Origin: Mayamaea pseudoterrestris
Lineage: Eukaryota; Bacillariophyta; Bacillariophyceae; Sellaphorales; Sellaphoraceae
Direction: 5' to 3'
NCBI GenBank assembly: GCA_027923505.1
Contig: BROI01000027.1
Location: 62,001 to 126,000 of the forward strand
Length of the DNA stretch: 64,000 nucleotides
In this document: positions 11,389-58,978 of the stretch, in pieces
Layout: the number at the start of each line of letters is the position of its first letter
Position numbering within the stretch: the first letter of the stretch is position 1
Program-made: the position numbers and the translations under genes
The notes under the pieces: model-generated
What the model was told of the DNA's origin: nothing
What the model saw: only the letters and a program-made list of their open reading frames with translations
The model's database searches: none

Positions 11389-14300
11389 GAGACTGGTGAC
11401 AAGTTGTCACCAAATACATTGCCATCCCCTGAGACACCAGCCAAGCCTACCATCTTGTAGCGCAGCCTGAATAAGGATGTTGGCACCATTCTGGTGTATT
11501 TTGGGCACCTACAGCGCTTGCTGTAGGGGTGTATGATTGTCATGGTGTTTGTGGGCTGAGACTGGTGACAAGTTGTCACCAAATACATTGCCATCCCTTG
11601 AGACACCAGCCAAGCCTACCATCTTGTAGCGCAGCCTGAATGATGATGTTGGCACTATTCTGGTGTATTTTGGGCACCTACAGGGCTTGCTGTAGGGGCA
11701 TTTGAATGTCATGGCATCTGCGGGCTGAGACTGGTGACAAGTTGTCACCAAATACATTGCCATGCCCTGAGACACCAGCCAAGCCTACCATCTTGTAGCG
11801 CAGCCTCAATAAGGATGGTGGCACCATTCTGGTGAATTTTGGGCACCTACTGGGCTTGCTGTAGGAGCGTTTGAATGTCACAGCATCTGCAGGCTGAGAT
11901 TGGTGACAAGTTGTCACCAAATACATTGCCATCCCCTGAGACGCCAGCCAAGCCTACCATCTTGTAGCGCAGCCTGAATTATGATGTTGGCACCATTCTG
12001 GTGTATTTTGGGCACCTACAGGGCTTGCTGTAGGGGCGTTTGAATGTCACAGCATCTGCGGGCTGAGACTGGTGACAAGTTGTCACCAAATACATTGCCA
12101 TCCCCTGAGACACCAGCCAAGCCTACCATCTTGTAGCGCAGCCTGAATAATGATGTTGGCACCATTCTGGTGTATTGTGGGCACCTACAGGGCTTGCTGT
12201 AGGGGCATTTGAATGTCACGGCATCGGCGGGCTGAGACTGGTGACAAGTTGTCACCAAATACATTGCCATGCCCTGAGACACCCGTCAATCCAACCATCT
12301 TGTAGCGCAGCCTGAATTATGATGTTGGCACCATTCTGGTGTATTTTGGGCACCTACAGGGCTTGCTGTAGGGGTGTATGATTGTCATGGTGTTTGTGGG
12401 CTGAGACTGGTGACAAGTTGTCACCAAATACATTGCCATCCCTTGAGACACCAGCCAAGCCTACCATCTTGTAGCGCAGCCTGAATAAGGATGTTGGCAC
12501 TATTTTGGTGTATTTTGGGCACCTACAGGGCTTGCTGTAGGGGCATTTGAATGTCATGGCATCTGCGGGCTGAGACTGGTGACAAGTTGTCACCAAATAC
12601 ATTGCCATCCTGTGAGACACCAGCCAAGCCTACCATCTTGTAGCGCAGCCTGAATAATGATGTTGGCACCATTCTGGTGTATTTTGGGCACCTACAGGGC
12701 TTGCTGTAGGGGCGTTTGAATGTCACGGCATCTGCGGGCTGAGACTGGTGACAAGTTGTCACCAAATACATTGCCATCCCCTGAGACAACAGTCAAGCCT
12801 TCCATTTTGTAGCGCAGCCTGAATAATGATGTTGGCACCATTCTGGTGTATTTTGGGCACCTACAGGGCTTGCTGTAGGGGCGTTTGAATGTCACGGCAT
12901 TCGCGGGCTGAGACTGGTGACAAGTTGTCACCAAATACATTGCCATCCCCTGAGACACCAGCCAAGCCTACCATTTTGTAGCGCAGGCTAAATATTGATG
13001 TTGTCACCATTCTGGTGTATTTTGGGCACCTACAGGGCTTGCTGTAGGGGCGTTTGAATGTCACAGCATTTGCGGGCTGAGACTGGTGACAAGTTGTCAC
13101 CAAATGCATTGCCATCCTGTGAGACACCAGCCAAGCCTACCATCTTGTAGCGCAGCCTGAATAATGATGTTGACACCATTCTGGTGTAATTTGGGCACCT
13201 ACAGGGCTTGCTGTAGGGGGGTTGAATGTCACGGCATTTGCGGGCTGAGACTGGTGACAAGTTGTCACCAAATACATTGCCATCCCCTGAGACACCAGCC
13301 AAGCCTACCATCTTGTAGCGCAGCCTGAATAATGATGTTGGCACCATTCTGGTGTATTTTGGGCACCTACAGGGCTTGCTGGAGGGGCGTTTGAATGTCA
13401 CGGCATCTGCGGGCTGAGACTGGTGACAAGTTGTCACCAAATACATTGCCATCCCCTGAGACACCAGCCAAGCCTACCATCTTGTAGCGCAGCCTGAATA
13501 ATGATGTTGGCACCATTCTGGTGTATTTTGGGCACCTACAGGGCTTGCTGTAGGGGCGTTTGAATGTCACGGCATTCGCGGGCTGAGACTGGTGACAAGT
13601 TGTCACCAAATACATTGCCATCCCCTGAGACACCAGCCAAGCCTACCATCTTGTAGCGCAGCCTGAATAATGATGTTGGCACCATTCTGGTGTATTTTGG
13701 GCACCTACAGGGCTTGCTGTAGGGGCGTTTGAATGTCACAGCATTTGCGGGCTGAGACTGGTGACAAGTTGTCACCAAATACATTGCCATCCCCTGAGAC
13801 ACCAGCCAAGCCTACCATCTTGTAGCGCAGCCTGAATAATGATGTTGGCACCATTCTGGTGTATTTTGGGCACCTACAGGGCTTGCTGTAGGGGCGTTTG
13901 AATGTCACAGCATTTGCGGGCTGAGACTGGTGACAAGTTGTCACCAAATGCATTGCCATCCTGTGAGACACCAGCCAAGCCTACCATCTTGTAGCGCAGC
14001 CTGAATAATGATGTTGGCACCATTCTGGTGTATTTTGGGCACCTACAGGGCTTGCTGTAGGGGCGTTTGAATGTCACGGCATTTGCGGGCTGAGACTGGT
14101 GACAAGTTGTCACCAAATACATTGCCATCCCCTGAGACACCAGCCAAGCCTACCATCTTGTAGCGCAGCCTGAATAATGAGGTTGGCACCATTCTGGTGT
14201 ATTTTGGGCACCTACAGGGCTTGCTGTAGGGGCGTTTGAATGTCACGGCATCTGCGGGCTGAGACTGGTGACAAGTTGTCACCAAATACATTGCCATCCC

Positions 14301-17300
14301 CTGAGACACCAGCCAAGCCTACCATTTTGTAGCGCAGCCTGAATAATGATGTTGGCACCATTCTGGTGTATTTTGGGCACCTACAGGGCTTGCTGTAGGG
14401 GCGTTTGAATGTCACAGCATTTGCGGGCTGAGACTGGTGACAAGTTGTCACCAAATACATTGCCATCCCCTGAGACACCAGCCAAGCCTACCATCTTGTA
14501 GCGCAGCCTGAATAATGATGTTGGCACCATTCTGGTGTATTTTGGGCACCTACAGGGCTTGCTGTAGGGGCGTTTGAATGTCACGGCATTTGCGGGCTGA
14601 GACTGGTGACAAGTTGTCACCAAATACATTGCCATCCCCTGAGACACCAGCCAAGCCTACCATCTTGTAGCGCAGCCTGAATAATGATGTTGGCACCATT
14701 CTGGTGTATTTTGGGCACCTACAGGGCTTGCTGTAGGGGCGTTTGAATGTCACAGCATTTGCGGGCTGAGACTGGTGACAAGTTGTCACCAAATACATTG
14801 CCATCCCCTGAGACACCAGCCAAGCCTACCATTTTGTAGCGCAGCCTGAATAATGATGTTGGCACCATTCTGGTGTATTTTGGGCACCTACAGGGCTTGC
14901 TGTAGGGGCGTTTGAATGTCACGGCATCTGCGGGCTGAGACTGGTGACAAGTTGTCACCAAATACATTGCCATCCCCTGAGACACCAGCCAAGCCTACCA
15001 TCTTGTAGCGCAGCCTGAATAATGATGTTGGCACCATTCTGGTGTATTTTGGGCACCTACAGGGCTTGCTGTAGGGCGTTTGAATGTTACAGCATAGCGG
15101 GCTGAGACTGGTGACAAGTTGTCACCAAATACATTGCCATCCCCTGAGACACCAGCCAAGCCTACCATCTTGTAGCGCAGCCTGAAATGGGTGGGCACCA
15201 TTCTGGTGTATTTTGGGCACCTACAGGTCTTGCTGTAGGGGCGTTTGAATGTCACGGCATCTGCGGGCTGAGACTGGTGACAAGTTGTCACCAAATACAT
15301 TGCCATCCCCTGAGACACCAGTCAAGCCTACCATTTGTAGCGCAGCCTCAATAATGATGGTGGCACCATTCTGATGTAATTTGGGCACCTACAGGGCTTG
15401 CTGTAGGGGCGTTTGAATGTCACGGCATCTGGGGGCTGAGACTGGTGACAAGTTGTCACCAAATACATTGCCATCCCCTGAGACACCAGCCAAGCCTGCC
15501 ATCTTGTAGCGCAGCCTGATTAATGATGTTGGAACCATTCTGGTGTATTTTGGGCACCTACAGGGCTTGCTGTAGGGGCGTTTGAATGTCACAGCATTTG
15601 CGGGCTGAGACTGGTGACAAGTTGTCACCAAATACATTGCCATCCCCTGAGACACCAGCCAAGCCTACCATCTTGTAGCGCAGCCTGAATAATGATGTTG
15701 GCACCATTCTGGTGTATTTTGGGCACCTACAGGGCTTGCTGTAGGGGCGTTTGAATGTCACGGCATCCGCGGGCTGAGACTGGTGACAAGTTGTCACCAA
15801 ATACATTGCCATCCCCTGAGACACCAGCCAAGCCTACCATCTTGTAGCGCAGCCTGAATAATGATGTTGGCACCATTCTGGTGTATTTTGGGCACCTACA
15901 GGGCTTGCTGTAGGGGCGTTTGAATGTCACGGCATCTGCGGGCTGAGACTGGTGACAAGTTGTCACCAAATACATTGCCATCCCCTGAGACACCAGCCAA
16001 GCCTACCATCTTGTAGCGCAGCCTGAATAATGATGTTGGCACCATTCTGGTGTATTTTGGGCACCTACAGGGCTTGCTGGAGGGGCGTTTGAATGTCACA
16101 GCATTTGCGGGCTGAGACTGGTGACAAGTTGTCACCAAATACATTGCCATCCCCTGAGACACCAGCCAAGCCTACCATCTTGTAGCGCAGCCTGAATAAT
16201 GATGTTGGCACCATTCTGGTGTATTTTGGGCACCTACAGGGCTTGCTGTAGGGGCGTTTGAATGTCACGGCATTTGCGGGCTGAGACTGGTGACAAGTTG
16301 TCACCAAATACATTGCCATCCCCTGAGACACCAGCCAAGCCTACCATCTTGTAGCGCAGCCTGAATAATGATGTTGGCACCATTCTGGTGTATTTTGGGC
16401 ACCTACAGGGCTTGCTGTAGGGGCGTTTGAATGTCACAGCATCTGCGGGCTGAGACTGGTGACAAGTTGTCACCAAATACATTGCCAACCCTGAGACACC
16501 AGCCAAGCCTACCATTTTGTAGCGCAGCCTGAATAATGATGTTGGCACCATTCTGGTGTATTTTGGGCACCTACAGGGCTTGCTGTAGGGGCGTTTGAAT
16601 GTCACGGCATTCGCGGGCTGAGACTGGTGACAAGTTGTCACCAAATACATTGCCATCCCCTGAGACACCAGCCAAGCCTACCATTTTGGAGCGCAGGCTG
16701 GATATTGATGTTGTCACCAATCTGGTGTATTTTGGGCACCTACAGGGCTTGCTGTAGGGGCGTTTGAATGTCACGGCATCTGCGGGCTGAGACTGGTGAC
16801 AAGTTGTCACCAAATACATTGCCATCCCCTGAGACACCAGCCAAGCCTACCATCTTGTAGCGCAGCCTGAATAATGATGTTGGCACCATTCTGGTGTATT
16901 TTGGGCACCTACAGGGCTTGCTGTAGGGGCGTTTGAATGTCACAGCATCTGCGGGCTGAGACTGGTGACAAGTTGTCACCAAATACATTGCCATCCCCTG
17001 AGACACCAGCCAAGCCTACCATCTTGTAGCGCAGCCTGAAGAATGATGTTGGCACCATTCTGGTGTATTTTGGGCACCTACAGGGCTTGCTGTAGGGGCG
17101 TTTGAATGTCACAGCATCTGCGGGCTGAGACTGGTGACAAGTTGTCACCAAATACATTGCCATCCCCTGAGACACCAGCCAAGCCTACCATCTTGTAGCG
17201 CAGCCTGAATAATGATGTTGGCACCATTCTGGTGTATTTTGGGCACCTACAGGGCTTGCTGGAGGGGCGTTTGAATGTCACAGCATTTGCGGGCTGAGAC

Positions 17301-20300
17301 TGGTGACAAGTTGTCACCAAATACATTGCCATCCCCTGAGACACCAGCCAAGCCTACCATTTTGTAGAGCAGCCTGAATAATGAGGTTGGCACAATTCTG
17401 GTGTATTTTGGGCACCTATAGGGCTTGCTGGAGGGGCGTTTGAATGTCACAGCATTTGCGGGCTGAGACTGGTGACAAGTTGTCACCAAATACATTGCCA
17501 TCCCCTGAGACACCAGCCAAGCCTACCATCTTGTAGCGCAGCCTGAATAATGATGTTGGCACCATTCTGGTGTATTTTGGGCACCTACAGGGCTTGCTGT
17601 AGGGGCGTTTGAATGTCACGGCATTTGCGGGCTGAGACTGGTGACAAGTTGTCACCAAATACATTGCCATCCCCTGAGACACCAGCCAAGCCTACCATCT
17701 TGTAGCGCAGCCTGAATAATGATGTTGGCACCATTCTGGTGTATTTTGGGCACCTACAGGGCTTGCTGTAGGGGCGTTTGAATGTCACAGCATCCGCGGG
17801 CTGAGACTGGTGACAAGTTGTCACCAAATACATTGCCATCCCCTGAGACACCAGCCAAGCCTACCATCTTGTAGCGCAGCCTGAATAATGATGTTGGCAC
17901 CATTCTGGTGTATTTTGGGCACCTACAGGGCTTGCTGTAGGGGCGTTTGAATGTCACGGCATCTGCGGGCTGAGACTGGTGACAAGTTGTCACCAAATAC
18001 ATTGCCATCCCCTGAGACACCAGCCAAGCCTACCATTTTGTAGCGCAGCCTGAATAATGATGTTGGCACCATTCTGGTGTATTTTGGGCACCTACAGGGC
18101 TTGCTGTAGGGGCGTTTGAATGTCACGGCATTGCGCTGGGCTGAGACTGGTGACAAGTTGTCACCAAATACATTGCCATCCCCTGAGACACCAGCCAAGC
18201 CTACCATCTTGTAGCGCAGCCTGAATAATGATGTTGGCACCATTCTGGTGTATTTTGGGCACCTACAGGGCTTGCTGTAGGGGCGTTTGAATGTCACGGC
18301 ATCTGCGGGCTGAGACTGGTGACAAGTTGTCACCAAATACATTGCCATCCCCTGAGACACCAGCCAAGCCTACCATCTTGTAGCGCAGCCTGAATAATGA
18401 TGTTGGCACCATTCTGGTGTATTTTGGGCACCTACAGGGCTTGCTGTAGGGGCGTTTGAATGTCACGGCATCTGCGGGCTGAGACTGGTGACAAGTTGTC
18501 ACCAAATACATTGCCATCCCCTGAGACACCAGCCAAGCCTACCATCTTGTAGCGCAGCCTGAATAATGATGTTGGCACCATTCTGGTGTATTTTGGGCAC
18601 CTACAGGGCTTGCTGTAGGGGCGTTTGAATGTCACTGCGGGCTGAGACTGGTGACAAGTTGTCACCAAATACATTGCCATCCCCTGAGACACCAGCCAAG
18701 CCTACCATCTTGTAGCGCAGCCTGAATAATGATGTTGGCACCATTCTGGTGTATTTTGGGCACCTACAGGGCTTGCTGGAGGGGCGTTTGAATGTCACAG
18801 CATTTGCGGGCTGAGACTGGTGACAAGTTGTCACCAAATACATTGCCATCCCCTGAGACACCAGCCAAGCCTACCATCTTGTAGCGCAGCCTGAATAATG
18901 ATGTTGGCACCATTCTGGTGTATTTTGGGCACCTACAGGGCTTGCTGTAGGGGCGTTTGAATGTCACGGCATCTGCGGGCTGAGACTGGTGACAAGTTGT
19001 CACCAAATACATTGCCATCCCCTGAGACACCAGCCAAGCCTACCATCTTGTAGCGCAGCCTGAATAATGATGTTGGCACCATTCTGGTGTATTTTGGGCA
19101 CCTACAGGGCTTGCTGGAGGGGCGTTTGAATGTCACGGCATCTGCGGGCTGAGACTGGTGACAAGTTGTCACCAAATACATTGCCATCCCCTGAGACACC
19201 AGCCAAGCCTACCATCTTGTAGCGCAGCCTGAATAATGATGTTGGCACCATTCTGGTGTATTTTGGGCACCTACAGGGCTTGCTGTAGGGGCGTTTGAAT
19301 GTCACGGCATCCGCGGGCTGAGACTGGTGACAAGTTGTCACCAAATACATTGCCATCCCCTGAGACACCAGCCAAGCCTACCATCTTGTAGCGCAGCCTG
19401 AATAATGATGTTGGCACCATTCTGGTGTATTTTGGGCACCTACAGGGCTTGCTGTAGGGGCGTTTGAATGTCACGGCATCCGCGGGCTGAGACTGGTGAC
19501 AAGTTGTCACCAAATACATTGCCATCCCCTGAGACACCAGCCAAGCCTACCATTTTGTAGCGCAGCCTGAATAATGATGTTGGCACCATTCTGGTGTATT
19601 TTGGGCACCTACAGGGCTTGCTGGAGGGGTGTTTGAATGTCACGGCATCCGCGGGCTGAGACTGGTGACAAGTTGTCACCAAATACATTGCCATCCCCTG
19701 AGACACCAGCCAAGCCTACCATCTTGTAGCGCAGCCTGAATAATGATGTTGGCACCATTCTGGTGTATTTTGGGCACCTACAGGGCTTGCTGTAGGGCGT
19801 TTGAATGTCACGGCATCTGCGGGCTGAGACTGGTGACAAGTTGTCACCAAATACATTGCCATCCCCTGAGACACCAGCCAAGCCTACCATCTTGTAGCGC
19901 AGCCTGAATAATGATGTTGGCACCATTCTGGTGTATTTTGGGCACCTACAGGGCTTGCTGTAGGGGCGTTTGAATGTCACGGCATCTGCGGGCTGAGACT
20001 GGTGACAAGTTGTCACCAAATACATTGCCATCCCCTGAGACACCAGCCAAGCCTAACATTTCGTAACGCAGCCTGATTTATGATGTTGGCGCCATTCTGG
20101 TGTATTTTGGGCACCTACAGGGCTTGCTGTGGGGGGGCGTTTGAATGTCACGGCATCTGCAGGCTGAGACTGGTGACAAGTTGTCACCAAATACATTGCC
20201 ATCCCCTGAGACACCAGCCAAGCCTACCATCTTGTAGCGCAGCCTGAATAATGATGTTGGCACCATTCTGGTGTATTTTGGGCACCTACAGGGCTTGCTG

Positions 20301-23300
20301 TAGGGGCGTTTGAATGTCACGGCATCCGCGGGCTGAGACTGGTGACAAGTTGTCACCAAATACATTGCCATCCTGTGAGACACCAGCCAAGCCTACCATC
20401 TTGTAGCACAGCCTGCATAATGATGTTGGCACCATTTCGTGTGTATTTTGGGACCTACAGGGCTTGCTGTAGGGGCGTTTGAATGTCACAGCATCTGCGG
20501 GCTGAGGCTGGTGACAAGTTGTCACCAAATACATTGCCATCCCCGAGACACCAGCCAAGCCTACCATCTTGTAGCGCAGCCTGAATAATGATGTTGGCAC
20601 CATTCTGGTGTATTTTGGGCACCTACAGGGCTTGCTGTAGGGGCGTTTGAATGTCACGGCATCTGCGGGCTGAGACTGGTGACAAGTTGTCACCAAATAC
20701 ATTGCCATCCCCTGAGACACCAGCCAAGCCTACCATCTTGTAGCGCAGCCTGAATAATGATGTTGGCACCATTCTGGTGTATTTTGGGCACCTACAGGGC
20801 TTGCTGTAGGGGCGTTTGAATGTCACGGCATCCGCAGGCTGAGACTGGTGACAAGTTGTCACCAAATACATTGCCATCCCCTGAGACACCAGCCAAGCCT
20901 ACCATCTTGTAGCGCAGCCTGAATAATGATGTTGGCACCATTCTGGTGTATTTTGGGCACCTACAGGGCTTGCTGGAGGAGCGTTTGAATGTCACGGCAT
21001 CCGCGGGCTGAGACTGGTGACAAGTTGTCACCAAATACATTGCCTTCCCCTGAGACACCAGCCAAGCCTACCATCTTGTAGCGGAGCCTGAATAATGAGG
21101 TTGCCACCATTTCTGGTGTATTTTGAGCATCTACAGGGCTTGCTGTAGGAGCGTTTGAATGTCACGGCATCCACGGGCTGAGACTGGTGACAAGTTGTCA
21201 CCAAATACATTGCCATCCCCTGAGACACCAGCCAAGCCTACCATCATGTAGCGCAGCCTCAATATTGATGGTGGCACCTTTCTGGTGTATTTTGGGCATC
21301 TACAGGGCTTGCTGTAGGAGCGTTTGAATGTCACGGCATCCGCAGGCTGAGACTGGTGACAAGTTGTCACCAAATACATTGCCATCCCCTGATACACCAG
21401 CCAAGCCTACCATCTTGTCGCGCAGCCTCAATAATGATGGTGGCACCATTCTGGTGTATTTTAGGCACCTACAGGGCTTGCTGTAGGGGCGTTTGAATGT
21501 CACGGCATCCGCGGGCTGAGACTGGTGACAAGTTGTCACCAAATACATTGCCATCCCCTGAGACACCAGCCAAGCCTACCATCTTGTAGCGCAGCCTGAA
21601 TAATGATGTTGGCACCATTCTGGTGTATTTTGGGCACCTACAGGGCTTGCTGGAGGAGCGTTTGAATGTCACGGCATCCGCGGGCTGAGACTGGTGACAA
21701 GTTGTCACCAAATACATTGCCATCCCCTGATACACCAGCCAAGCCTACCATCTTGTAGCGCAGCCTGAATAATGATGTTGGCACCATTCTGGTGTATTTT
21801 GGGCACCTACAGGGCTTGCTGTAGGAGCGTTTGAATGTCACGGCATCCACGGGCTGAGACTGGTGACAAGTTGTCACCAAATGCATATCCTCCCTGAGAC
21901 ACCAGCCAAGCCTACCATCTTGTAGCGCAGCCTGCATAATGATGTTGGCATCATTCTTGGTGTATTTTGGGCACCTACAGGGCTTGCTGGAGGGTGTTTG
22001 AATGTCAAGGGATCTGCGGGCTGAGACTGGTGACAAGTTGTCACCAAATACATTGCCATCCCCTGAGACACCAGCCAAGCCTACCATTTTGTAGCGCAGC
22101 CTGATAATGATGTTGGCACCATTCTGGTGTATTTTGGGCACCTACAGGGCTTTGCTGGAGGGCGTTTGAATGTCACACGGCATCGCGGGCTGAGACTGGT
22201 GACAAGTTGTCACCAAATACATTGCCATCCCCTGAGACACCAGCCAAGCCTACCATCTTGTAGCGCAGCCTGAATAATGATGTTGGCACCATTCTGGTGT
22301 ATTTTGGGCACCTACAGGGCTTGCTGGAGGGGCGTTTGAATGTCACAGCATCTGCGGGCTGAGACTGGTGACAAGTTGTCACCAAATACATTGCCATCCC
22401 CTGAGACACCAGCCAAGCCTACCATCTTGTCGCGCAGCCTGAATAATGATGTTGGCACCATTCTGGTGTATTTTGGGCACCTACAGGGCTTGCTGGAGGG
22501 GCGTTTGAATGTCACGGCATCTGCGGGCTGAGACTGGTGACAAGTTGTCACCAAATACATTGCCATCCCCTGAGACACCAGCCAAGCCTACCATCTTGTA
22601 GCGCAGCCTGAATAATGATGTTGGCATCATTCTGGTGTATTTTGGACACCTACAGGGCTTGCTGTAGGGACATTTGAATGTCACGGCATCCGCGGGCTGA
22701 GACTGGTGACAAGTTGTCACCAAATACATTGCCATCCCCTGAGACACCAGCCAAGCCTACCATCCTGTAGAGCAGCCTGCATAATGATGTTGGCACCATT
22801 CTGGTGTATTTTGGGCACCTACAGGGCTTGCTGGAGGGGCGTTTGAATGTCACGGCATCTGCGGGCTGAGACTGGTGACAAGTTGTCACCAAATACATTG
22901 CCATCCCCTGAGACACCAGCCAAGCCTACCATCTTGTAGCGCAGCCTGAATAATGATGTTGGCACCATTCTGGTGTATTTTGGGCACCTACAGGGCTTGC
23001 TGTAGGGGCGTTTGAATGTCATGGCATCTGCAGGCTGAGACTGGTGACAAGTTGTCACCAAATACATTGCCATCCCCTGAGACACCAGCCAAGCCTACCA
23101 TCTTGTAGCGCAGCCTGAATAATGATGTTGGCACCATTCTGGTGTATTTTGGGCACCTACAGGGCTTGCTGTAGGGGCGTTTGAATGTCACGGCATCTGC
23201 GGGCTGAGACTGGTGACAAGTTGTCACCAAATACATTGCCATCCCCTGATACACCAGCCAAGCCTACCATCTTGTAGCGCAGCCTGAAAAATGATGTTGG

Positions 23301-25712: not shown

Positions 25713-25866
25713 ACACCATGGAATGGTCTGCAGGCTGGGTGTGGTGACAAGTTATGGAGTCATACCACCAATGCCCCAACGGCCATCCAACAATCCAATG
25801 AGTCACGGCAATGCCGTTGCCATTGTGCAGAACAAGTGCAGGTCTGCCTGGGGCTGACATGGGTTA
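25713..25866 (+). repeat. 180-bp family relic fused to the end of the 169-bp array
   Basis: After the last partial 169-bp unit the sequence resumes recognisable 180-bp family text (ATGGAATGGTCTGCA, ATGGAGTCATACCAC, CCAACAATCCAATGAGTCA). Where that family normally has GGGTGTGGCCAACACCCC, this copy reads GGGTGTGGTGACAAG, so it looks like a chimera with the palindrome of the 169-bp family. Divergence is higher than in the left 180-bp array. Confidence 0.75.
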
Positions 25867-26612
25867 CGGCCCCAGCTGTGGGTGTTGGATCATTACATAA
25901 ATCCCATCTGAAAGTTTGATGTGGTTGACCACTTGAAGGAACCTACTTGCTACAATCACGCACATCCACTGACTGATGTGCTTCCTTTTTGGACCATCTC
26001 AGCCTTTGACTTTGTCAAACAACTTATGCTGATTGCAATGGCATGCTCAGAATAATGCTAGCAAGGTTGAATTGTCACACTAAACCCAACTGAAAGTTTG
26101 CTGTGTTTGCCACATGGTAAAGCCTACTTGTCTCAGTCTCGGTTGCACTGCAGCCACTGACTGAACTGCTGCCGTTTTCAAAGATCCAAGCTTGGACCTC
26201 GTCAAGTACCGTCTGCAGATTGCAGTTGCAAGTTCGGATTCATGGTGACAAGTTTGGATCATTTCATAAATCCCATCTGAAAGTTTGATGTGGTTGACCA
26301 CTTGAAGGAACCTACTTGCTACAATCACGCACATCCACTGACTGATGTGCTTCCATTTTGGACCATCTCAGCCTTTGACTTTGTCAAACAACTTTTTCTG
26401 ATTGCAATGGCATGCTCAGAATAATGCTAGCAAGGTTGGATTATCACACTAAACTCAACTGAAAGTTTGATGTGTTTGCCACATGGTAAAGCCTACTTGT
26501 CTCAGTCTCGGTTGCACCACAGCCACTGACTGAACTGCTGCCGTTTTCAAAGATCCAAGCCTTGGACCTTGTCAAGTATCAACTGCAGATTGCAGTTGCA
26601 GGTTTGGATTCA
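25867..26612 (+). repeat. 370-bp satellite, left pair (dimeric units)
   Basis: Two copies are spaced 369 bp (landmark GATCATT at 25888 and 26257). Each unit consists of two related halves of about 185 bp that share AAGGTTGGAT, CTGAAAGTTTG, CCTACTTG, CACTGACTGA, a -TTGTCAA- stretch and a -TTGCAATGGCA/TTGCAGTTGCA- end. The second copy ends in GGTTTGGATTCA and is joined directly to the 346-bp array at 26613. The matching pair lies on the far side of that array. Confidence 0.9.
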
Positions 26613-27069
26613 CCTGCTAAGCCATCCAACCCCTTTCCACTAATGTTTGTTGATATTTTGGTCCAATGCTGGGGTGACTATCACCCCAATATCCACCAGC
26701 CTGGCTGCCATGGTGAGACTCAGCAGATCCAATAACTTGTTGGATCTGCCAGCGGTGCACCTCAGCTGGTACACAGACAGCCAGGATGGCCTGCAGACCC
26801 AAGAATATCAAAACCAAAATACATATGATACAATTGGACCAATAGTCATATCAATTGTGGTGTGGAACGCAGCATTGTGCCATGAGGCTGCGCACATTCA
26901 ACAAGTTGTTGAATGTGCTAGCAGTGAACCATGCTTTAACTACAGGATCATCAATCTTGCCTGCTAAGCCATCCAACTTGTTTCCTATGATGTTGGTTGA
27001 TATTTTGGTCCAATGCTGGGGTAACTATCACCCCAATATCCACCAGCCTGGCTGCCATGGTGAGACTCA

Positions 27070-27096
27070 GCAGATCCAATAAGTTGTTGGATCTGC
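27070..27096. other. 27-nt palindrome, half A of the 346-bp unit (example)
   Basis: The arms GCAGATCCAATAA and TTGTTGGATCTGC flank a central G. Twelve of 13 pairs are Watson-Crick and one is T-G, which an RNA stem would tolerate. It is preceded by GAGACT, as in the 169-bp family, and repeats about every 346 bp from 26.7 to 38.1 kb. Confidence 0.85.
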
Positions 27097-27238
27097 CAGT
27101 GGTGCACCTCAGCTGGTACACAGACAGCCAGAATGGCCTGCAGACCCAAGAATATCATAACCAAAATACATATGATACAATTGGACCAATAGGCATGTCA
27201 ATTGTGGTGTGGAACGCAGCATTGTGCCATGAGACTGC

Positions 27239-27265
27239 GCACATTCAACAAGTTGTTGAATGTGC
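27239..27265. other. 27-nt perfect palindrome, half B of the 346-bp unit (example)
   Basis: The arms GCACATTCAACAA and TTGTTGAATGTGC flank a central G, giving 13 perfect pairs. Flanking CTGC and GCAG can extend the stem past a 2-nt bulge. It repeats every 346 bp. The diverged copy near 39.5 kb has CAACCA-A-TGGTTG in the core, a paired change that keeps the symmetry. Confidence 0.88.
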
Positions 27266-30200: not shown

Positions 30201-33200
30201 TGGTGAGACTCAGCAGATCCAATAACTTGTTGGATCTGCCAGCGGTGCACCTCAGCTGGTACACAGACAGCCAGGATGGCCTGCAGACCCAAGAATATCA
30301 AAACCAAAATACATATGATACAATTGGACCAATAGTCATATCAATTGTGGTGTGGAACGCAGCATTGTGCCATGAGGCTGCGCACATTCAACAAGTTGTT
30401 GAATGTGCTAGCAGTGAACCATGCTTTAACTACAGGATCATCAATCTTGCCTGCTAAGCCATCCAACTTGTTTCCTATGATGTTGGTTGATATTTTGGTC
30501 CAATGCTGGGGTAACTATCACCCCAATATCCACCAGCCTGGCTGCCATGGTGAGACTCAGCAGATCCAATAAGTTGTTGGATCTGCCAGTGGTGCACCTC
30601 AGCTGGTACACAGACAGCCAGAATGGCCTGCAGACCCAAGAATATCATAACCAAAATACATATGATACAATTGGACCAATAGGCATGTCAATTGTGGTGT
30701 GGAACGCAGCATTGTGCCATGAGACTGCGCACATTCAACAAGTTGTTGAATGTGCTAGCAGTGCACCCATTTTGGCTTTAGGATCATCAGCCTTGCCTGC
30801 TAAGCCATCCAACCCCTTTCCATTATTGTTTGTTGACATTTTGAGCCAATGCTGGGGTGACTATCACCCCAATATCCACCAGCCTGGCTGCCATGGTGAG
30901 ACTCAGCAGATCCAATAAGTTGTTGGATCTGCCAGTGGTGCACCTCAGCTGGTACACAGACAGCCAGAATGGCCTGCAGACCAAAGAATATCAAAACCAA
31001 AATACATATGATACAATTGGACCAATAGTCATGTCAATTGTGGTGTGGAACGCAGCATTGTGCCATGAGACTGCGCACATTCAACAAGTTGTTGAATGTG
31101 CTAGCAGTGAACCATGCTTTAACTACAGGATCATCAATCTTGCCTGCTAAGCCATCCAACCTGTTTCCTATGATGTTGGTTGATATTTTGATCCAATGCT
31201 GGGGTGACTATCACCCCAATATCCACCAGCCTGGCTGCCATGGTGAGACTCAGCAGATCCAATAAGTTGTTGGATCTGCCAGTGGTGCACCTCAGCTGGT
31301 ACACAGACAGCCAGAATGGCCTGCAGACCCAAGCATATCATAACCAAAATACATATGATACAATTGGACCAATAGGCATGTCAATTGTGGTGTGGAACGC
31401 AGCATTGTGCCATGAGACTGCGCACATTCAACAAGTTGTTGAATGTGCTAGCAGTGCACCCTTTTTGGCTTTAGGATCATCAGCCTTGCCCGCTAAGCCA
31501 TCCAACCCCTTTCCATTAATGTTTGTTGACATTTTGAGCCAATGCTGGGGTGACTATCACCCCAATATCCACCAGCCTGGCTGCCATGGTGAGACTCGGC
31601 AGATCCAATAAGTTGTTGGATCTGCCAGTGGTGCACCTCAGCTGGTACACAGACAGCCAGGATGGCCTGCAGACCAAAGAATATCAAAACCAAAATACAT
31701 ATGATACAATTGGACCAATAGTCATGTCAATTGTGGTGTGGAACGCAGCATTGTGCCATGAGACTGCGCACATTCAACAAGTTGTTGAATGTGCTAGCAG
31801 TGCACCATGCTTTAACTACAGGATCATCAGTCTTGCCTGCTAAGCCATCTAACCCCTTTCCACTAATGTTGGTTAATATTTTGATCCAATGCTGGGGTGA
31901 CTAACACCCCAATATCCACCAGCCTGTCTGCCATGGTGGGACTGAGCACCTCCAACAACTTGTTGGATATGCCAGTGGTGCACCTCAGGTGGCAACCAGA
32001 CTGCCAGAATGGCCTGCAGACCCAAGAATATCATAACCAAAATACATATGATACAATTGGACCAATAGTCATGTCAATTTTGGTGTGGAACGCAGCATTG
32101 TGCCATGAGACTGCGCACATTCAACAAGTTGTTGAATGTGCTAGCAGTGCACCCTTTTTGGCTATAGGATCATCAGCCTTGCCTGCTAAGCCATCCAACC
32201 CCTTTCCACTAATGTTTGTTGACATTTTGATCCAATGCTGGGGTGACTATCACCCCAATATCCACCAGCCTGGCTGCCATGGTGAGACTCGGCAGATCCA
32301 ATAAGTTGTTGGATCTGCCAGTGGTGCACCTCAGCTGGTACACAGACAGCCAGGATGGCCTGCAGACCAAAGAATATCAAAACCAAAATACATATGATAC
32401 AATTGGACCAATAGTCATGTCAATTTTGGTGTGGAACGCAGCATTGTGCCATGAGACTGCGCACATTCAACAAGTCGTTGAATGTGCTAGCAGTGAGCCA
32501 TGCTTTAACTACGGGATCATCAGCCTTACCTGCTAAGCCATTCAACCTGTTTCCTATGATGTTTGTTGACATTTTGAGCCAATGCTGGGGTGACTATCAC
32601 CCCAATATCCACCAGCCTGGCTGCCATGGTGAGACTTGGCAGATCAAATAAGTTGTTGGATCTGCCAGCGGTGCACCTCAGCTGGTACACAGACTGCCAG
32701 GATGGCAACCAAAGAATATCATAACCAAAATACATATGATACAATTGGACCAATAGTCATGTCAATTTTGGTGTGGAACGCAGCATTGTGCCATGAGACT
32801 GCGCACATTCAACAACTTGTTGAATGTGCTAGCAGTGCATCCTTTTTGGCTATAGGATCATCAGCCTTGCCTGCTAAGCCTTCCAACCCCTTTCCACTAA
32901 TGTTTGTTGACATTTTGAGCCAATGCTGGGGTGACTATCACCCCAATATCCACCAGCCTGGCTGCCATGGTGAGACTCGGCAGATCCAATAAGTTGTTGG
33001 ATCTGCCAGTGGTGCACCTCAGCTGGTACACAGACAGCCAGAATGGCCTGCAGACCAAAGAATATCATAACCAAAATACATATGATACAATTGGACCAAT
33101 AGTCATGTCAATTTTGGTGTGGAACGCAGCATTGTGCCATGAGACTGCGCACATTCAACAAGTTGTTGAATGTGCTAGCAGTGCACCCTTTTTGGCTATA

Positions 33201-36200
33201 GGATCATCAGCCTTGCCTGCTAAGCCATCCAACCCCTTTCCACTAATGTTTGTTGACATTTTGAGCCAATGCTGGGGTGACTATCACCCCAATATCCACC
33301 AGCCTGGCTGCCATGGTGAGACTCAGCAGATCCAATAAGTTGTTGGATCTGCCAGTGGTGCACCTCAGCTGGTACACAGACAGCCAGAATGGCCTGCAGA
33401 CCAAAGAATATTAAAACCAAAATACATATGATACAATTGGACCAATAGTCATGTCAATTTTGGTGTGGAACACAGCATTGTGCCATGAGACTGCGCACAT
33501 TCAACAAGTTGTTGAATGTGCTAGCAGTGCACCCTTTTTGGCTTTAGGATCATCAGCCTTGCCTGCTAAGCCATCCAACCCCTTTCCACTAATGTTTGTT
33601 GACATTATGAGCCAATGCTGGGGTGACTATCACCCCAATATCCACCAGCCTGGCTGCCATGGTGAGACTCAGCAGATCCAATAAGTTGTTGGATCTGCCA
33701 GTAGTGCACCTCCGCTGGTACACAGACTGCCAGAATGGCCTGCAGACCCAAGAATAACCAAAACCAAAATACATTTGGACCAATAGTCATGTCAATTGTG
33801 GTGTGGAACGCAGCATTGTGCCATGAGACTGCGCACATTCAACAAGTTGTTGAATGTGCTAGCAGTGCACCCTTTTGGCTATAGGATCATCAGCCTTGCC
33901 TGCTAAGCCATCCAAGCCCTTTCCAGGCATGCTGGGGTGACTATCACCCCAATATCTACCAGCCTGGCTGCCATGGTGAGACTCAGCAGATCCAATAAGT
34001 TGTTGGATCTGCCAGTGCTGCACCTCAGCTGGTACACAGACAGCCAGAATGGCCTGCAGACCCAAGAATATCATAACCAAAATACATATGATACAATTGG
34101 ACCAATAGTCATGTCAATTTTGGTGTGGAACGCAGCATTGTGCCATGAGACTGCGCACATTCAACAAGTTGTTGAATGTGCTAGCAGTGCACCCTTTTTG
34201 GCTATAGGATCATCAGCCTTGCCTGCTAAGCCATCCAACCCCTTTCCACTAATGTTGGTTGATATTTTGGTCCAATGCTGGGGTGACTATCACACCAATA
34301 TCCACCAGCCTGGCTGCCATGGTGAGCCTCAGCAGATCCAATAAGTTGTTGGATCTGCCAGTGGTGCACCTCAGCTGGTACACAGACAGCCAGAATGGCC
34401 TGCAGACCCAAGAATATCAAAACCAAAATACATATGATACAATTGGACCAATAGTCATGTCAATTTTGGTGTGGAACGCAGCATTGTGCCATGAGACTCT
34501 GCACATTCAACAAGTTGTTGAATGTGCTAGCAGTGCACCCTTTTTGGCTATAGGATCATCAGCCTTGCCTGCTAAGCCATCCAACCCCTTTCCACTTAAT
34601 GTTGTTGACATGATGGTGACTATCACCCCAATATCCACCAGCCTGGCTGCCATGGTGAGACTCAGCAGATCCAATAAGTTGTTGGATCTGCCAGTGGTGC
34701 ACCTCAGCTGGTACACAGACAGCCAGAATGGCCTGCAGACCCAAGAATATCATAACCAAAATACATATGATACAATTGGACCAATAGTCATGTCAATTTT
34801 GGTGTGGAACGCAGCATTGTGCCATGAGACTGCGCACATTCAACAAGTTGTTGAATGTGCTAGCAGTGCACCCTTTTTGGCTATAGGATCATCAGCCTTG
34901 CCTGCTAAGCCATCCAACCTGTTTCCTATGATGTTGGTTGATATTTTGATCCAATGCTGGGGTGACTATCACCCCAATATCCACCAGCCTGGCTGCCATG
35001 GTGAGACTCGGCAGATCCAATAAGTTGTTGGATCTGCCAGTGGTGCACCTCAGCTGGTACACAGACAGCCAGAATGGCCTGCAGACCCAAGAATATCATA
35101 ACCAAAATACATATGATACAATTGGACCAATAGTCATGTCAATTTTGGTGTGGAACGCAGCATTGTGCCATGAGACTGCGCACATTCAACAAGTTGTTGA
35201 ATGTGCTAGCAGTGCATCCTTTTTGGCTATAGGATCATCAGCCTTGCCTGCTAAGCCATCCAACCCCTTTCCATTAATGTTTGTTGACATTATGAGCCAT
35301 TGCTGGGGTGACTATCACCCCAATATCCACCAGCCTGGCTGCCATGGTGAGACTCAGCAGATCCAATAAGTTGTTGGATCTGCCAGTAGTGCACCTCCGC
35401 TGGTACACAGACAGCCAGAATGGCCTGCAGACCCAAGAATATCATAACCAAAATACACATGATACAATTGGACCAATAGTCATGTCAATTTTGGTGTGGA
35501 ACGCAGCATTGTGCCATGAGACTGCGCACATTCAACAAGTTGTTGAATGTGCTAGCAGTGCACCCTTTTTGGCTATAGGATCATCAGCCTTGCCTGCTAA
35601 GCCTTCCAACCCCTTTCCACTAATGTTTGTTGACATTTTGAGCCAATGCTGGGGTGACTATCACCCCAATATCTACCAGCCTGGCTGCCATGGTGAGACT
35701 CGGCAGATCCAATAAGTTTTTGGATCTGCCAGTGGTGCACCTCAGCTGGTACACAGACAGCCAGGATGGCCTGCAGACCAAAGAATATCAAAACCAAAAT
35801 ACATATGAAACAATTGGACCAATAGTCATGTCAATTTTGGTGTGGAACGCAGCATTGTGCCATGAGACTGCGCACATTCAACAAGTTGTTGAATGTGCTA
35901 GCAGTGCATCCTTTTTGGCTATAGGATCATCAGCCTTGCCTGCTAAGCCTTCCAACCCCTTTCCACTAATGTTTGTTGACATTTTGAGCCAATGCTGGGG
36001 TGACTATCACCCCAATATCTACCAGCCTGGCTGCCATGGTGAGACTCAGCAGATCCAATAAGTTGTTGGATCTGCCAGTGCTGCACCTCAGCTGGTACAC
36101 AGACAGCCAGAATGGCCTGCAGACCCAAGAATATCAAAACCAAAATACATTTGATACAATTGGACCAATAGTCATGTCAATTGTGGTGTGGAACGCAGCA

Positions 36201-38580
36201 TTGTGCCATGAGACTGCGCACATTCAACAAGTTGTTGAACGTGCTAGCAGTGAACCATGCTTTAACTACAGGATCATCAATCTTGCCTGCTAAGCCATCC
36301 AACCTGTTTCCTATGATGTTGGTTGATATTTTGATCCAATGCTGGGGTGACTATCACCCCAATATCCACCAGCCTGGCTGCCATGGTGAGACTCGGCAGA
36401 TCCAATAAGTTGTTGGATCTGCCAGTGGTGCACCTCAGCTGGTACACAGACAGCCAGAATGGCCTGCAGACCCAAGAATATCAAAACCAAAATACATATG
36501 ATACAATTGGACCAATAGTCATGTCAATTTTGGTGTGGAACGCAGCATTGTGCCATGAGACTGCGCACATTCAACAAGTTGTTGAATGTGCTAGCAGTGA
36601 GCCATGCTTTAACTACAGGATCATCAGCCTTGCCTGCTAAGCCATCCAACCCCTTTCCACTAATGTTTGTTGATATTTTCATCCAATGCTGGGGGTGACT
36701 ATCACCCCAATATCCACCAGCCTGGCTGCCATGTTGAGACTCGGCAGATCCAATAACTTGTTGGATCTGCCAGCGGTGCACCTCAGCTGGTACACAGACC
36801 GCCAGAATGGCCTGCAGACCAAAGAATATCATAACCAAAATACATATGATACAATTGGACCAATAGTCATGTCAATTGTGGTGTGAAACGCAGCATTGTG
36901 CCATGAGACTGCGCACATTCAACAAGTTGTTGAATGTGCTAGCAGTGCATCCTTTTTGGCTATAGGATCATCAGCCTTGCCTGCTAAGCCATCCCACCTG
37001 TCTCCTATGATGTTGGTTGATATTTTGATCCAATGCTGGGGTGACTATCACCCCAATATCCACCAGCCTGACTGCCATGGTGAGACTCAGCAGATCCAAT
37101 AAGTTGTTGGATCTGCCAGTGGTGCACCTCAGCTGGTACACAGACAGCCAGAATGGCCTGCAGACCAAAGAATATCAAAACCAAAATACATATGATACTA
37201 TTGGACCATAAGACATGTCAATTTTGGTGTGGAACGCAGCATTGTGCCATGAGACTCTGCACTTTCAACAAGTTGTTGAATGTGCTAGCAGTGAGCCATG
37301 CTTTAACTACAGGATCATCAGCCTTGCCTGCTAAGCCATCCAACCCCTTTCCACTAATGTTTGTTGATATTTTGATCCAATGCTGGGGGTGACTATCACC
37401 CCAATATCCACCAGCCTGGCTGCCATGGTGAGACTCGGCAGATCCAATAACTTGTTGGATCTGCCAGTGGTGCACCTCAGCTGGTACACAGACAGCCAGA
37501 ATGGCCTGCAGACCAAAGAATTTAAAAACCAAAATAGATTTGATACAATTGGACCAATAGTCATGTCAATTGTGGTGTGGAACGCAGCATTGTGCCATGA
37601 GACTGCGCACATTCAACAAGTTGTTGAATGTGCTAGCAGTGCACCCTTTTTGGCTATAGGATCATCAGCCTTGCCTGCTAAGCCTTCCAATCCCTTTCCA
37701 CTAATGTTTGTTGACATTTTGAGCCAATGCTGGGGTGACTATCACCCCAATATCCACCAGCCTGGCTGCCATGGTGAAACTTGGCAGATCAAATAACTTG
37801 TTGGATCTGCCAGTGGTGCACCTCAGCTGGTACACAGACCACCAGGATGGCCTGCAGACCCAAGAATATCATAACCAAAATAGATTTGATACAATTGGAC
37901 CAATAGTCATGTCAATTGTGGTGTGGAACGCAGCATTGTGCCATGAAACTGCGCACATTCAACAAGTTGTTGAATGTGCTAGCAGTGCACCCTTTTTGGC
38001 TATAGGATCATCAGCCTTGCCTGCTAAGCCTTCCAATCCCTTTCCACTAATGTTTGTTGACATTTTGAGACAATGCTGGGGTGACTATCACCCCAATATC
38101 CACCAGCCTGGCTGCCGTGGTGAGACTCGGCAGATCCAATAAGTTGTTGGATCTGCCAGTGGTGCACCTCAGCTGGTACACAGACTGCCAGAATGGCCTG
38201 CAGACCCAAGAATATCATAACCAAATTACACATGATACAATTGGACCAATAGTCATGTCAATTTTGGTGTGGAACGCAGCATTGTGCCATGAGACTGCGC
38301 ACATTCAACAAGTTGTTGAATGTGTTAGCAGTGCACCCTTTTTGGCTATAGGATCATCAGCCTTGCCTGCTAAGCCATCCAACCTGTTTCCTATGATGTT
38401 GGTTGATATTTTGATCCAATGCTGGGGTGACTATCACCCCAATATCCACCAGCCTGGCTGCCATGGTGAGCTCGGGTCATAAGTTGTTGGATCTGCCAGT
38501 GCACCTCAGCGGTACACGAGAGATGGCCTGCACCGACAAAACCAAAATACATATGATACAATTGGACCAATAGTCATGTA

Positions 38581-39320
38581 AATGGTGACAAGGTTGGATC
38601 ATTTCATTAATCCCATCTGATAGTTTGATGTGGTTGACCACTTGGAGGAACCTACTTGCTACAATCATGCACATCCACTGACTGATGTGCTTCCTTTTTG
38701 GACCATCTCAGCCTTTGACTTTGTCAAACAACTTACGCTGATTGCAATGGCATGCTCAGAATAATGCTAGCAAGGTTGGATTGTCACATTAAACCCAACT
38801 GAAAGTTTGCTGTGTTTGCCACATGGTAAAGCCTACTTGTCTCAGTCTCGGTTGCACCGCAGCCACTGACTGAACTGCTGCCGTTTTCAAAGATCCAAGC
38901 CTTGGACCTTGTCAAGTACCATCTGCAGATTGCAGTTGCAGGTTTGGATTCATGGTGACAAGGTTGGTTCATTACATAAATCTTATCTGAAATATTGATG
39001 TGGTTGACCACTTGGAGGAATCTACTTGCTACAATCATGCACATCCACTGACTGATGTGCTTCCTTTTTGGACCATCTCAGCCTTTGACTTTGTCAAACA
39101 ACTTATGCTGATTGCAATGGCATGCTCAGAATAATGCTAGCAAGGTTATATTATCACACTAAACCCAACTGAAAGATTGCTGTGTCTGCCACATGGTAAA
39201 CCCTACTTGTCTCAGTCTCAGTTGCACAGCAGCCATTGACTGAATTGCTGCTGTTTTTAGAGATCCAAGCCTTGGACCTTGTCAAGCACCGTCTGCAAAT
39301 TACAGTTGCAGGTTTGGATT
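38581..39320 (+). repeat. 370-bp satellite, right pair
   Basis: Two dimeric units in the same orientation as the pair at 25.9-26.6 kb (landmarks GATCATT at 38597 and GTTCATT at about 38967). The second ends in GGTTTGGATTCATAGACT (39311-39328), an 18-mer also found within the 506-bp array (7979-7996). Confidence 0.9.
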
Positions 39321-40032
39321 CATAGACTCAACGTCCCAACAACTTGTTGGATCTGCTAGCAGTGCACCTCAAGTGGCACTTCAGACTGCCAGAATGGCCT
39401 ATCAATTCTGTAATACAAAAACATTGTGTTTCAAATTGAATGGGACTCAAAGGCTTGTCATCTTGGGTGTGGAACCCATCCCTTTGCCATGAGACTCCGC
39501 ACATTCAACCAATGGTTGAATGTGCCAGCGGTGCACCCTTTTTGGCTACAGGAATCATCAGTGCTGCGTTCTAAGCCCTGAAAGCCTTTCCAATTCAAGT
39601 ATGGTGTCATGATGGGCCAATGATTTGGTCAGTTGCACCCATTCCAGTCTCCACCACCATGTATGCCATGGTGAGACTCAGCTTGCAGATCCAAAAACTT
39701 GTTGGATCTGCTAGCAGTGCACCTCAAGTGGCACTTCAGACTGCCTGCATGGCCTGCCAATACTGGAATACAATGAGCATTGTGGTTTTCATTCATTAAG
39801 GACTCAAAGGCTTTGCTTGTCACATTAGGTATGGAACCCATCCCTTGGCCATGAGACTTTGCACATTCAACCAATAGTTGAATGTGCCAGCGGTGCACCA
39901 TTTTTGGCTACAGGGATCTTCAGTGCAGCCTTCTGAGCCCTGAAATCCTTTCCAATTCATGTGTGTGTCATGATGAGCCAATGATTTGGTCAGTTGCACC
40001 CATTCCAGTCTCCACCACCATGTATGCCATTG
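39321..40032 (+). repeat. diverged 355-bp relatives of the 346-bp dimer (two copies)
   Basis: The order of landmarks is that of the 346-bp unit: a TTGTTGGATCTG palindrome half, CTAGCAGTGCACCTCA, GCCATGAGACT, the GCACATTCAACC palindrome, GTGCACC-TTTTTGGCTA, and GCCATGGTGAGACTCAG. The spacing is about 355 bp and many substitutions and small indels separate it from the main array. It looks like an older layer of the same satellite. Paired changes preserve the half-B palindrome in the first copy; the second copy carries one mismatch. Confidence 0.85.
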
Positions 40033-40870
40033 TGAAATGTCCATACCTTGAGCCATGTGTATGCCCAGATCAAGCTTGAATGGTGCTAACATCCTTATTT
40101 CAGATGAGCTACAAGATAAGTGGCCTGGCTGGCCCCTCGGTAGACTGCAATGTGACTGGTGTGAAATTCTCACCAGTCTCAGCCAGCAGATGTCGAAATT
40201 TTCAAATGTCCATACCTGAGCCATGTGTATGCCCAAATCAAGCCAGAATATTGCTAACATCCTTATTTCAGATGCGCTACAAGATGTTTTGCCTGGCTGG
40301 TCCCTCAAGGGATTGCAATGTGACTGGTGAGAAGTTCTCACCAGTCTCAGCCAGCAGATGCTGTTATATTTGAAATTCCCCCATACCTTGAGCCATGTGT
40401 ATGCCCAAATCAAGCCAGAATGGTGCTAACATTTTTATTTCAGATGCGCTACAAGATGGTTTGCCTGGCTGGTCCCTTGGTAGACTGCAATGTGATTGGT
40501 GGCAACTTGTCACCAGTCTCAGCCAGCAGATGCCGTAATTTTCAAATGTCCACACCGTGAGCCATGTGTATGCCCAAATCAAGCCAGAATGGTGCTAACA
40601 TCCTTATTTCAGATGCGCTACAAGTCAACTTTACAGGATAGTGTCTCCGTGGACTGAAATGTGATTGGTGACAACTTGTCACCAGTCGCAGCCAGCAGAT
40701 GCCATGCCCATACCTTGAGCCATGTCTATGCCCAAACCAAGCCAGAATGGTGCTAACATTCTTATTTTCGGTGCACTAAAATTGGATTGCCTGGCTGGTC
40801 CCTCGGTAGACTGCAATGTGACTGGTGAGAAGTTCTCACCAGTCTCAGCCAGCAGATGCCGTAATTTTTA
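40033..40870 (-). repeat. diverged 169-bp-family satellite in opposite orientation (five copies)
   Basis: CCATACC or CCACACC landmarks at 40041, 40210, 40381, 40550 and 40708 give spacings of 158-171. The reverse complement follows the main 169-bp unit along its length: GCTGAGACTGGTGA, the palindrome, the GTAGCGC- and ATTCTGG-like stretches, and the -GGGC- segment. Identity looks like roughly three quarters. Each copy has a 25-nt odd-centred palindrome. This is the only place where a family in the block appears inverted. Confidence 0.85.
40322..40346. other. 25-nt perfect palindrome of the inverted 169-like family
   Basis: The arms GACTGGTGAGAA and TTCTCACCAGTC flank a G. Sister copies read GGTGACAA-C-TTGTCACC (about 40.66 kb), so a C-G pair has become a G-C pair while symmetry is kept. 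Other copies have G-T wobbles (about 40.5 kb) or one mismatch (about 40.16 kb). Confidence 0.88.
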
Positions 40871-58970: not shown

Positions 58971-58978
58971 CGAGGCAC

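What the first reader, a model, noticed from the sequence alone, without database searches (positions are those of the whole stretch)
11395..40860. One odd-centred palindrome per monomer, conserved by paired base changes
The 169-bp family has GGTGACAA-G-TTGTCACC. The 346-bp halves have 13+1+13 palindromes. The inverted 169-like copies have 12+1+12. All share an AA-(G/C)-TT core and often a preceding GAGACT. Diverged copies keep symmetry with paired changes: GACAA/TTGTC versus GAGAA/TTCTC (about 40.3, 40.66 and 40.83 kb), and CAACAA-G-TTGTTG versus CAACCA-A-TGGTTG (27.2 versus 39.5 kb). Some remaining changes are G-T pairs. Retention of symmetry while the rest drifts suggests the palindrome itself matters: a site for a dimeric protein, a cruciform, or an RNA hairpin.
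Basis: partly seen in the sequence, partly recalled or inferred. Interest (0 to 1): 0.85.

Follow-up and report, generated by a model that had tools for sequence, protein, structure and literature searches.

The report
Mirror-symmetric box in diatom satellite DNA
In a diatom genome, long runs of repeated DNA keep one short mirror-symmetric box almost unchanged while the rest of each repeat drifts, which looks most like the docking site of a paired DNA-binding protein, although no such protein has been shown.

Summary
The palindromes are real: 84 odd-centred ones in the 169-bp array and 68 in the 346-bp array, against 0.4 and 0.8 in shuffles. The organism is a diatom; GGTGACAAGTTGTCACC occurs 7671 times in its 30.6-Mb assembly.

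The strongest signal is constraint, not covariation. In the window array the 17 bp vary at 0.07% per base, the rest at 3.1%. The two halves of the 346-bp unit align detectably only across a 52-bp box around the palindrome.

Paired changes exist but are restricted. At the third pair from the centre, 46 of 50 double changes genome-wide are complementary (about 0.5 doubles expected), beside 131 single changes. At the fifth pair there are no doubles. The 346 halves differ by two more complementary pairs.

G.T mismatches are no commoner than A.C in the sampled loci (31 versus 30), against an RNA hairpin. In two of three box types the centre changes mostly between G and C.

Best reading: the recognition box of a two-fold symmetric DNA-binding protein in a conserved-box satellite family. 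The protein is unidentified; template switching between arms remains a live contributor.

The parts
11388..25712 (+). Array of 169-bp monomers, 84.9 copies; one box per monomer: TGAGACT + GGTGACAA-G-TTGTCACC + AAATACATT
   Evidence: array; 85 monomers aligned; 17 bp vary 0.07%, rest 3.1%; 84 exact palindromes, first at 11395, last ends 25423
26613..38583 (+). Array of 346-bp units, 34.7 copies, each with an A box (GCAGATCCAATAA-S-TTGTTGGATCTGC) and a B box (GCACATTCAACAA-S-TTGTTGAATGTGC) 169 and about 177 bp apart, each preceded by TGAGACT
   Evidence: palindromes vary 2.6% and 2.9%, rest 7.6%
39325..40034 (+). Diverged single copies of A- and B-type boxes: A-type at 39336 and 39685, B-type with A-T to C-G at pair 2 at 39499 and 39861 (the one at 39861 has one broken pair)
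40035..40875 (-). Five old 169-type monomers in inverted orientation; boxes at 40154, 40322, 40497, 40666, 40820, of which 40322 and 40820 are perfect 12+1+12 with GAGAA/TTCTC
   Evidence: flank identity to the 169 consensus 0.70-0.75 for the three GAGAA monomers

Best explanation
The palindrome is the core of a conserved box, about 25 to 50 bp, in a family of diatom satellite DNAs with units near 170 bp. Most likely it is read as double-stranded DNA by a two-fold symmetric (dimeric) nuclear protein. Shown: constraint on the box; symmetry of the arms; conservation of the box where the rest of the A and B half-monomers no longer aligns; preference for G or C at the centre in two of three box types. 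Inferred: that a protein reads it; that monomers keeping the box are retained or amplified because of that binding; that the few paired changes are shifts to another symmetric half-site read by both protomers. The role (centromere, heterochromatin, array packaging) is not shown.
For: Window array: one variant in 17 bp over 85 monomers against 3.1% per base outside. Sample of 406 monomers from loci not chosen by the palindrome: 357 exact 17-mers where flank divergence predicts about 139 (sums by hand). 346 array: A and B palindromes 2.6% and 2.9% against 7.6%, with the centre the most variable site of each (7 and 5 of 35). A against B: box 38 of 52 identical, z 8.5; flanks z 1.7 and 1.4; of 5 differences in the 27 bp, 4 form two complementary pairs. 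Pair 3 of the 169 box: 46 of 50 doubles complementary, 0.5 doubles expected. Innermost pair A-T in 197 of 200 A and B boxes. Centre: A boxes G 37, C 60, A 1, T 1, 7 of 9 tree changes C-G against 14 of 244 in flanks; 169 boxes C 44, A 32, T 13 copies among about 6900, whereas flank G/C sites show 1.75% transitions, 0.36% G>T, 0.30% G>C, so A and T are suppressed and C is not.
Against: No protein is identified. Single changes outnumber paired ones at pair 3 (131 against 46 copies) and no doubles occur at pair 5. In the 169 family the centre as a whole is no freer than pair 3 (89 variants against 48 and 83), and the B centre is G 87, A 10, T 2, C 2. Conserved blocks can occur without a palindrome: the 180-bp satellite has a 17-bp window at 0.7% against a median of 4.6%. 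TGAGACT outside the palindrome is conserved too, so symmetry is not the whole signal.
Confidence: 0.55

Rival explanations
1. Template switching at the inverted repeat: in replication one arm is copied from the other, which homogenises the arms and inverts the spacer. Symmetry, paired changes and centre flips would be by-products of mutation.
For: Known to homogenise arms and invert spacers in yeast (PMC8604942, passages read) and to make compensatory changes in stems (PMC8794818, abstract and start of introduction read). Centre G to C is in excess: 26 of 57 loci against 8 of 45 at the right base of pair 3, p = 0.003. On C26 a T-A double at pair 3 (193838, 194007) lies about 0.7 kb from single C.A copies (192614, 193113). 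Doubles with G-C have centre C in 25, G in 16, T in 3.
Against: It does not slow change in the arms. It predicts doubles at other pairs too, but pair 5 has none. A T.G mismatch at pair 3 has persisted in 85 of 99 A boxes from several arrays, and the centre flipped in copies that kept it.
Confidence: 0.2
2. RNA hairpin or cruciform: the single strand folds into a stem, and the structure is what is kept.
For: Arms of 8 to 13 pairs; the fixed mismatch of the A box is T.G, which can pair in RNA of the + strand; the innermost pair is the one most often broken in old 169 boxes (6 of 53), as a loop would allow.
Against: G.T and A.C mismatches are equal, 31 and 30 distinct locus-pair cases; at pair 3 genome-wide C.A is commoner than T.G, 28 against 14 loci, p = 0.04, the opposite strand to the A box. 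No Rfam match in the arrays. The innermost pair is kept in 197 of 200 A and B boxes.
Confidence: 0.13
3. Founder effect: the palindrome is only the oldest, best-preserved part of a few amplified founders, and the paired differences are ancient subfamily markers without present function.
For: The GAGAA/TTCTC copies are mostly an old subfamily with right flank AGTCACATTG (19 of 26); about five distinct paired events in all. On the flank tree they need 20 changes for 26 copies, shuffled 24 or more.
Against: Founders do not explain why the box drifts 44-fold less than its own monomer within one array, or why only the box aligns between A and B.
Confidence: 0.12

Closest known systems
Conserved-box satellite DNAs of Meloidogyne nematodes: CENP-B box-like motif (PMC3694981 and PMC9673304, passages read) and 19-bp box (Despot-Slade et al. 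2021, PMC8097292: not held, seen only as cited in PMC9673304 and PMC11538461)
   Same: A short box stays conserved in satellites whose remaining sequence has diverged; arrays are spread along chromosomes; a protein-binding role is proposed.
   Different: Here the box is an odd-centred palindrome of 17-27 bp with complementary changes between box types, in a diatom; no similarity to the CENP-B box above shuffled level. Nothing is known here of the centromere histone. The passages seen of the nematode papers do not mention palindromes ('palindrom' 0 occurrences in both).
CENP-B box of human alpha satellite
   Same: 17-bp conserved site in a near-170-bp satellite (recalled; box as printed in PMC9673304).
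   Different: The human box is not a palindrome; match 7 to 9 of 17, not above shuffles; no CENP-B_N domain found in this assembly.
Short dyad symmetries of centromeric satellites (PMC11538461, PMC13081366, passages read)
   Same: Inverted repeats in satellite monomers.
   Different: Those are proposed as non-B structure enriched at centromeres; here one fixed box per monomer, sequence-conserved, at many places and of unknown centromere status.
Template-switch homogenised inverted repeats (PMC8604942, PMC8794818)
   Same: Arm symmetry and spacer inversion.
   Different: Low rate of change of the arms and no doubles at pair 5 are not predicted.

Membership tests
Conserved-box satellite DNA (Meloidogyne type) | Box varies much less than the rest of the monomer | tested here: met
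   0.07% against 3.1%; 2.6-2.9% against 7.6%
Conserved-box satellite DNA (Meloidogyne type) | Box shared by satellites that otherwise do not align | tested here: met
   A and B halves of the 346 unit: box z 8.5, flanks z 1.7 and 1.4. Not met between 169 and 346: no profile match; they share only TGAGACT and a core like ACAASTTGT, by eye
Conserved-box satellite DNA (Meloidogyne type) | Association with the centromere histone (19-bp box) | not testable with these tools
   needs ChIP or CUT&Tag
CENP-B / CENP-B box | Similarity to the 17-bp CENP-B box | tested here: not met
   7-9 of 17, shuffled means 8.7-9.0
CENP-B / CENP-B box | CENP-B-type DNA-binding domain in the genome | tested here: inconclusive
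   PF04218 none, control rang in 2 of 14 genomes; PF03221 none, but nothing rang in the controls either
Structured RNA | Match to a known RNA family | tested here: not met
   only two sub-threshold matches, both outside the arrays
Structured RNA | G.U tolerated more than A.C on one strand | tested here: not met
   31 against 30
Template-switch product | Spacer (centre) inversion in excess | tested here: met
   169 centre C against A+T 26:31 loci, arm 8:37; A centre 7 of 9 changes C-G. Not seen in B
Template-switch product | Double changes at further pairs | tested here: not met
   pair 5: 0 doubles; in 53 old boxes only pair 3. Other pairs not counted genome-wide

The most novel reading that the evidence does not exclude
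The box-bearing arrays, seen at 116 places on 35 of 41 contigs (a lower bound), are docking sites of a dimeric chromatin or centromere protein that marks this diatom's chromosomes at many places (a repeat-based poly- or holocentromere in a protist), and the symmetric half-site changes record co-evolution of that protein with its satellite.
Probability: 0.07. Interest if true: 0.85.

Novelty: new variant of a known kind. Interest (0 to 1): 0.5.

Why it matters
Satellite DNA is usually taken to drift freely. A dyad box of 17-27 bp kept through thousands of drifting copies in a unicellular alga is a ready-made bait for the protein that reads diatom satellites. It is also a test case for telling selection on a symmetric binding site from palindromes kept symmetric by template switching: arms constrained, the centre moving mainly between G and C in two box types, paired changes confined to few pairs.

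Tried and rejected
RNA families: two sub-threshold matches, both outside the arrays. Recombination site: hybrids of 169- and 346-type boxes occur at some array edges, but of 60 edges 43 were usable (16 at model ends and 1 at a masked stretch left out) and 11 of these lie in the box, which is 23% of the monomer; counted by hand, no enrichment. Terminal inverted repeats of a tandem transposon: rejected by inspection, because in the 346 unit the arms around one junction match each other while the two ends of one unit would not. Phage contigs with the same 17-mer: 24 stretches, two with two sites 39 bp apart; read as chance or repressor operators, not followed; the 346 word had none. Two places on C1 listed with a single anchored word proved to lie in diverged 169 arrays; other places were not checked. 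CENP-B-type domains: none found, one of the two searches uninformative. Papers: no description of this satellite in the listings (open-licence papers only; the species is not known to me), so this is no claim that it is unpublished.

Rows dropped or biased: of 508 profile hits 466 were usable and 447 entered the tree. The bins leave out 18 loci (L034-L051) picked by the word GGTGAGAASTTCTCACC; those loci do enter, so the share of GAGAA copies there is inflated. Without them, monomers below 0.82 flank identity have pair 3 as C-G 14, G-C 8, unpaired 5 of 27. Hits were found with a profile that includes the box, so copies with a lost box are under-sampled. In one search the flank spectrum uses only G/C columns at least 85% uniform. 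One search stopped with an error after its hit table and was redone; one search stopped after its main numbers and its last part was redone.

Full report
What is there. The window is bases 62001-126000 of contig C27 in a 30.6-Mb, 41-contig assembly. The protein at 46509-47351 has its best named relative in the diatom Seminavis robusta and further ones in other diatoms, so the organism is a diatom; I did not settle the species. Between ordinary genes (aldo-keto reductase, SLAC1-type channel, ABC transporter, JmjC/cupin protein and others) lie about 36 kb of tandem satellites with units of 169, 346, 180, 182/183, 370 and 453 bp.

The observation. Repeated odd-centred palindromes are confined to the 169 and 346 families and their old relatives: 84 and 68 against 0.4 and 0.8 in shuffles, 4 in the inverted copies and 3 in the single A/B copies. 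The coordinates of the finding hold. Genome-wide GGTGACAAGTTGTCACC occurs 3747 + 3924 times, its reversed control never; at 169 bp each that is at least 1.3 Mb, about 4% of the assembly (arithmetic). GCACATTCAACAAGTTGTTGAATGTGC occurs 144 times. The variant copies alone mark 116 separate places on 35 of 41 contigs, so the arrays are dispersed.

Constraint. In the 85 monomers of the window array the 17 bp hold one variant altogether, the lowest of all 17-bp windows together with the window one base to the left; TGAGACT before it and AAATACATT after it are almost as quiet. Across 466 usable monomers 380 have the exact 17-mer; among the 406 from loci not chosen by the palindrome 357 do, where the flanks' own divergence predicts about 139. 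Per-column changes on a flank tree: flanks 11.8 on average, arms 6.4 (dominated by pair 3 with 25 and 23), centre 19. In the 346 array the arms vary at about 2% (by hand), the rest at 7.6%, the centres at 7 and 5 of 35. The A and B halves align above shuffled level only over a 52-bp box. So the box has outlived the monomer around it. Cautions: the 180-bp satellite also has a quiet 17-bp window, and the profile used to collect monomers includes the box.

Paired changes. With GAGACT as anchor I counted pair 3 over the whole genome: 6801 copies with the consensus pair and centre, 48 left singles, 83 right singles of which 22 lie in one array on C4, and 50 doubles, of which 46 are complementary (44 G-C, 2 T-A) and 4 are not. 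Independence predicts 0.5 doubles. By locus it is 36 complementary against 84 single. The G-C doubles mostly belong to an old subfamily with AGTCACATTG on the right (19 of 26 sampled), where the palindrome is 12+1+12. At pair 5 there are no doubles. In 53 distinct old boxes only pair 3 covaries: 19 cells against 8.4 shuffled, score 0.118 against 0.054, slid versions at most 0.064. By mutual information pair 3 ranks 3 of 990 column pairs; the next ring ranks 183. In the 346 family pairs 7 and 10 differ between A and B in a complementary way, and pair 2 of B is A-T in 89, C-G in 5 and unpaired in 7 of 101 boxes. I see about five distinct paired events in all.

The centre. To a symmetric dimer, G and C at the central base pair are the same site seen from two sides. 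In A boxes the centre is G 37, C 60, A 1, T 1 of 99, and 7 of 9 changes on the flank tree are C-G against 14 of 244 in flanks. In the 169 family the centre variants are C 44, A 32, T 13 copies, or 26, 21 and 10 loci; C is in excess compared with the right base of pair 3 (26:31 against 8:37 loci, p = 0.003). Against the flank spectrum A and T are suppressed and C is not. Results that do not fit: B boxes have G 87, A 10, T 2, C 2; the 169 centre as a whole is no freer than pair 3; the 296 monomers hold two G to T and no G to C at the centre. Template switching also predicts G to C flips by spacer inversion (PMC8604942) and may contribute.

Dimer, RNA or cruciform. G.T and A.C mismatches are equal in the sampled loci, 31 and 30, although at pair 3 genome-wide C.A is commoner than T.G, 28 against 14 loci, p = 0.04. 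The only fixed mismatch, T.G at pair 3 of 85 of 99 A boxes, would pair in RNA of the other strand. No RNA family matches in the arrays. The innermost pair, which a hairpin does not need, is kept in 197 of 200 A and B boxes but broken in 6 of 53 old 169 boxes. On balance recognition of double-stranded DNA is favoured. Template switching alone does not explain why arms hardly change or why pair 5 never changes in pairs. I put the symmetric DNA-binding protein at 0.55; I lowered this from 0.6 on rechecking the innermost pair.

What is known. Satellites that share a conserved box while the rest diverges are known in Meloidogyne (PMC3694981, PMC9673304; passages read), whose authors propose protein binding. 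The diatom box works like that, but it is a long palindrome, resembles the CENP-B box no more than shuffled sequence does, and no CENP-B_N domain was found. I file it as a new variant of the conserved-box satellite.

Limits. One species and one assembly, partly of low quality (L076). About 0.27 Mb was read besides the window; genome-wide statements rest on exact-word counts. No phylogenetic null was run. The binding protein and any function are inferred.

Noticed in passing
window 11385-11389 and 25752-25756: The 169 array sits inside 180-bp-family DNA with TTATG at both junctions; the right junction carries half a box, GGTGACAAG, next to it, as if the array had been inserted there.
   Followed up: partly
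window 38582-39323: The 370-bp family starts ATGGTGACAAGGTTGGATC, which looks like the left half of the 169 box joined to the right half of the 346 A box.
   Followed up: no
window 10323-11389; L024: The 180-bp satellite has its own low-variability 17-bp window, GCAAAACATGTCCAGGG, 0.7% against a median of 4.6%.
   Followed up: partly
window 5830-6212: The 182-bp family holds CCATAGCTG...CAGCTATGG inverted repeats with a longer loop, 3 exact copies.
   Followed up: no
window 58762-59141; L014; L018 2281-2422; L025 7241-7439: Dispersed 42-51 bp minisatellites, and an 18+1+18 palindrome AGTGCCAAAAACTTTGA... in L014, on several contigs.
   Followed up: no
L076 (G000:C1:1691400-1692299): A 169-type array with many dropped bases, suggesting unpolished assembly there.
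   Followed up: no
L027 (G000:C40:1-10000): By eye GC-rich and unlike the other contig starts; possibly a bacterial contaminant.
   Followed up: no
L053, L059 (viral contigs): The same 17-mer occurs in 24 viral stretches, twice as two sites 39 bp apart; perhaps phage repressor operators.
   Followed up: no
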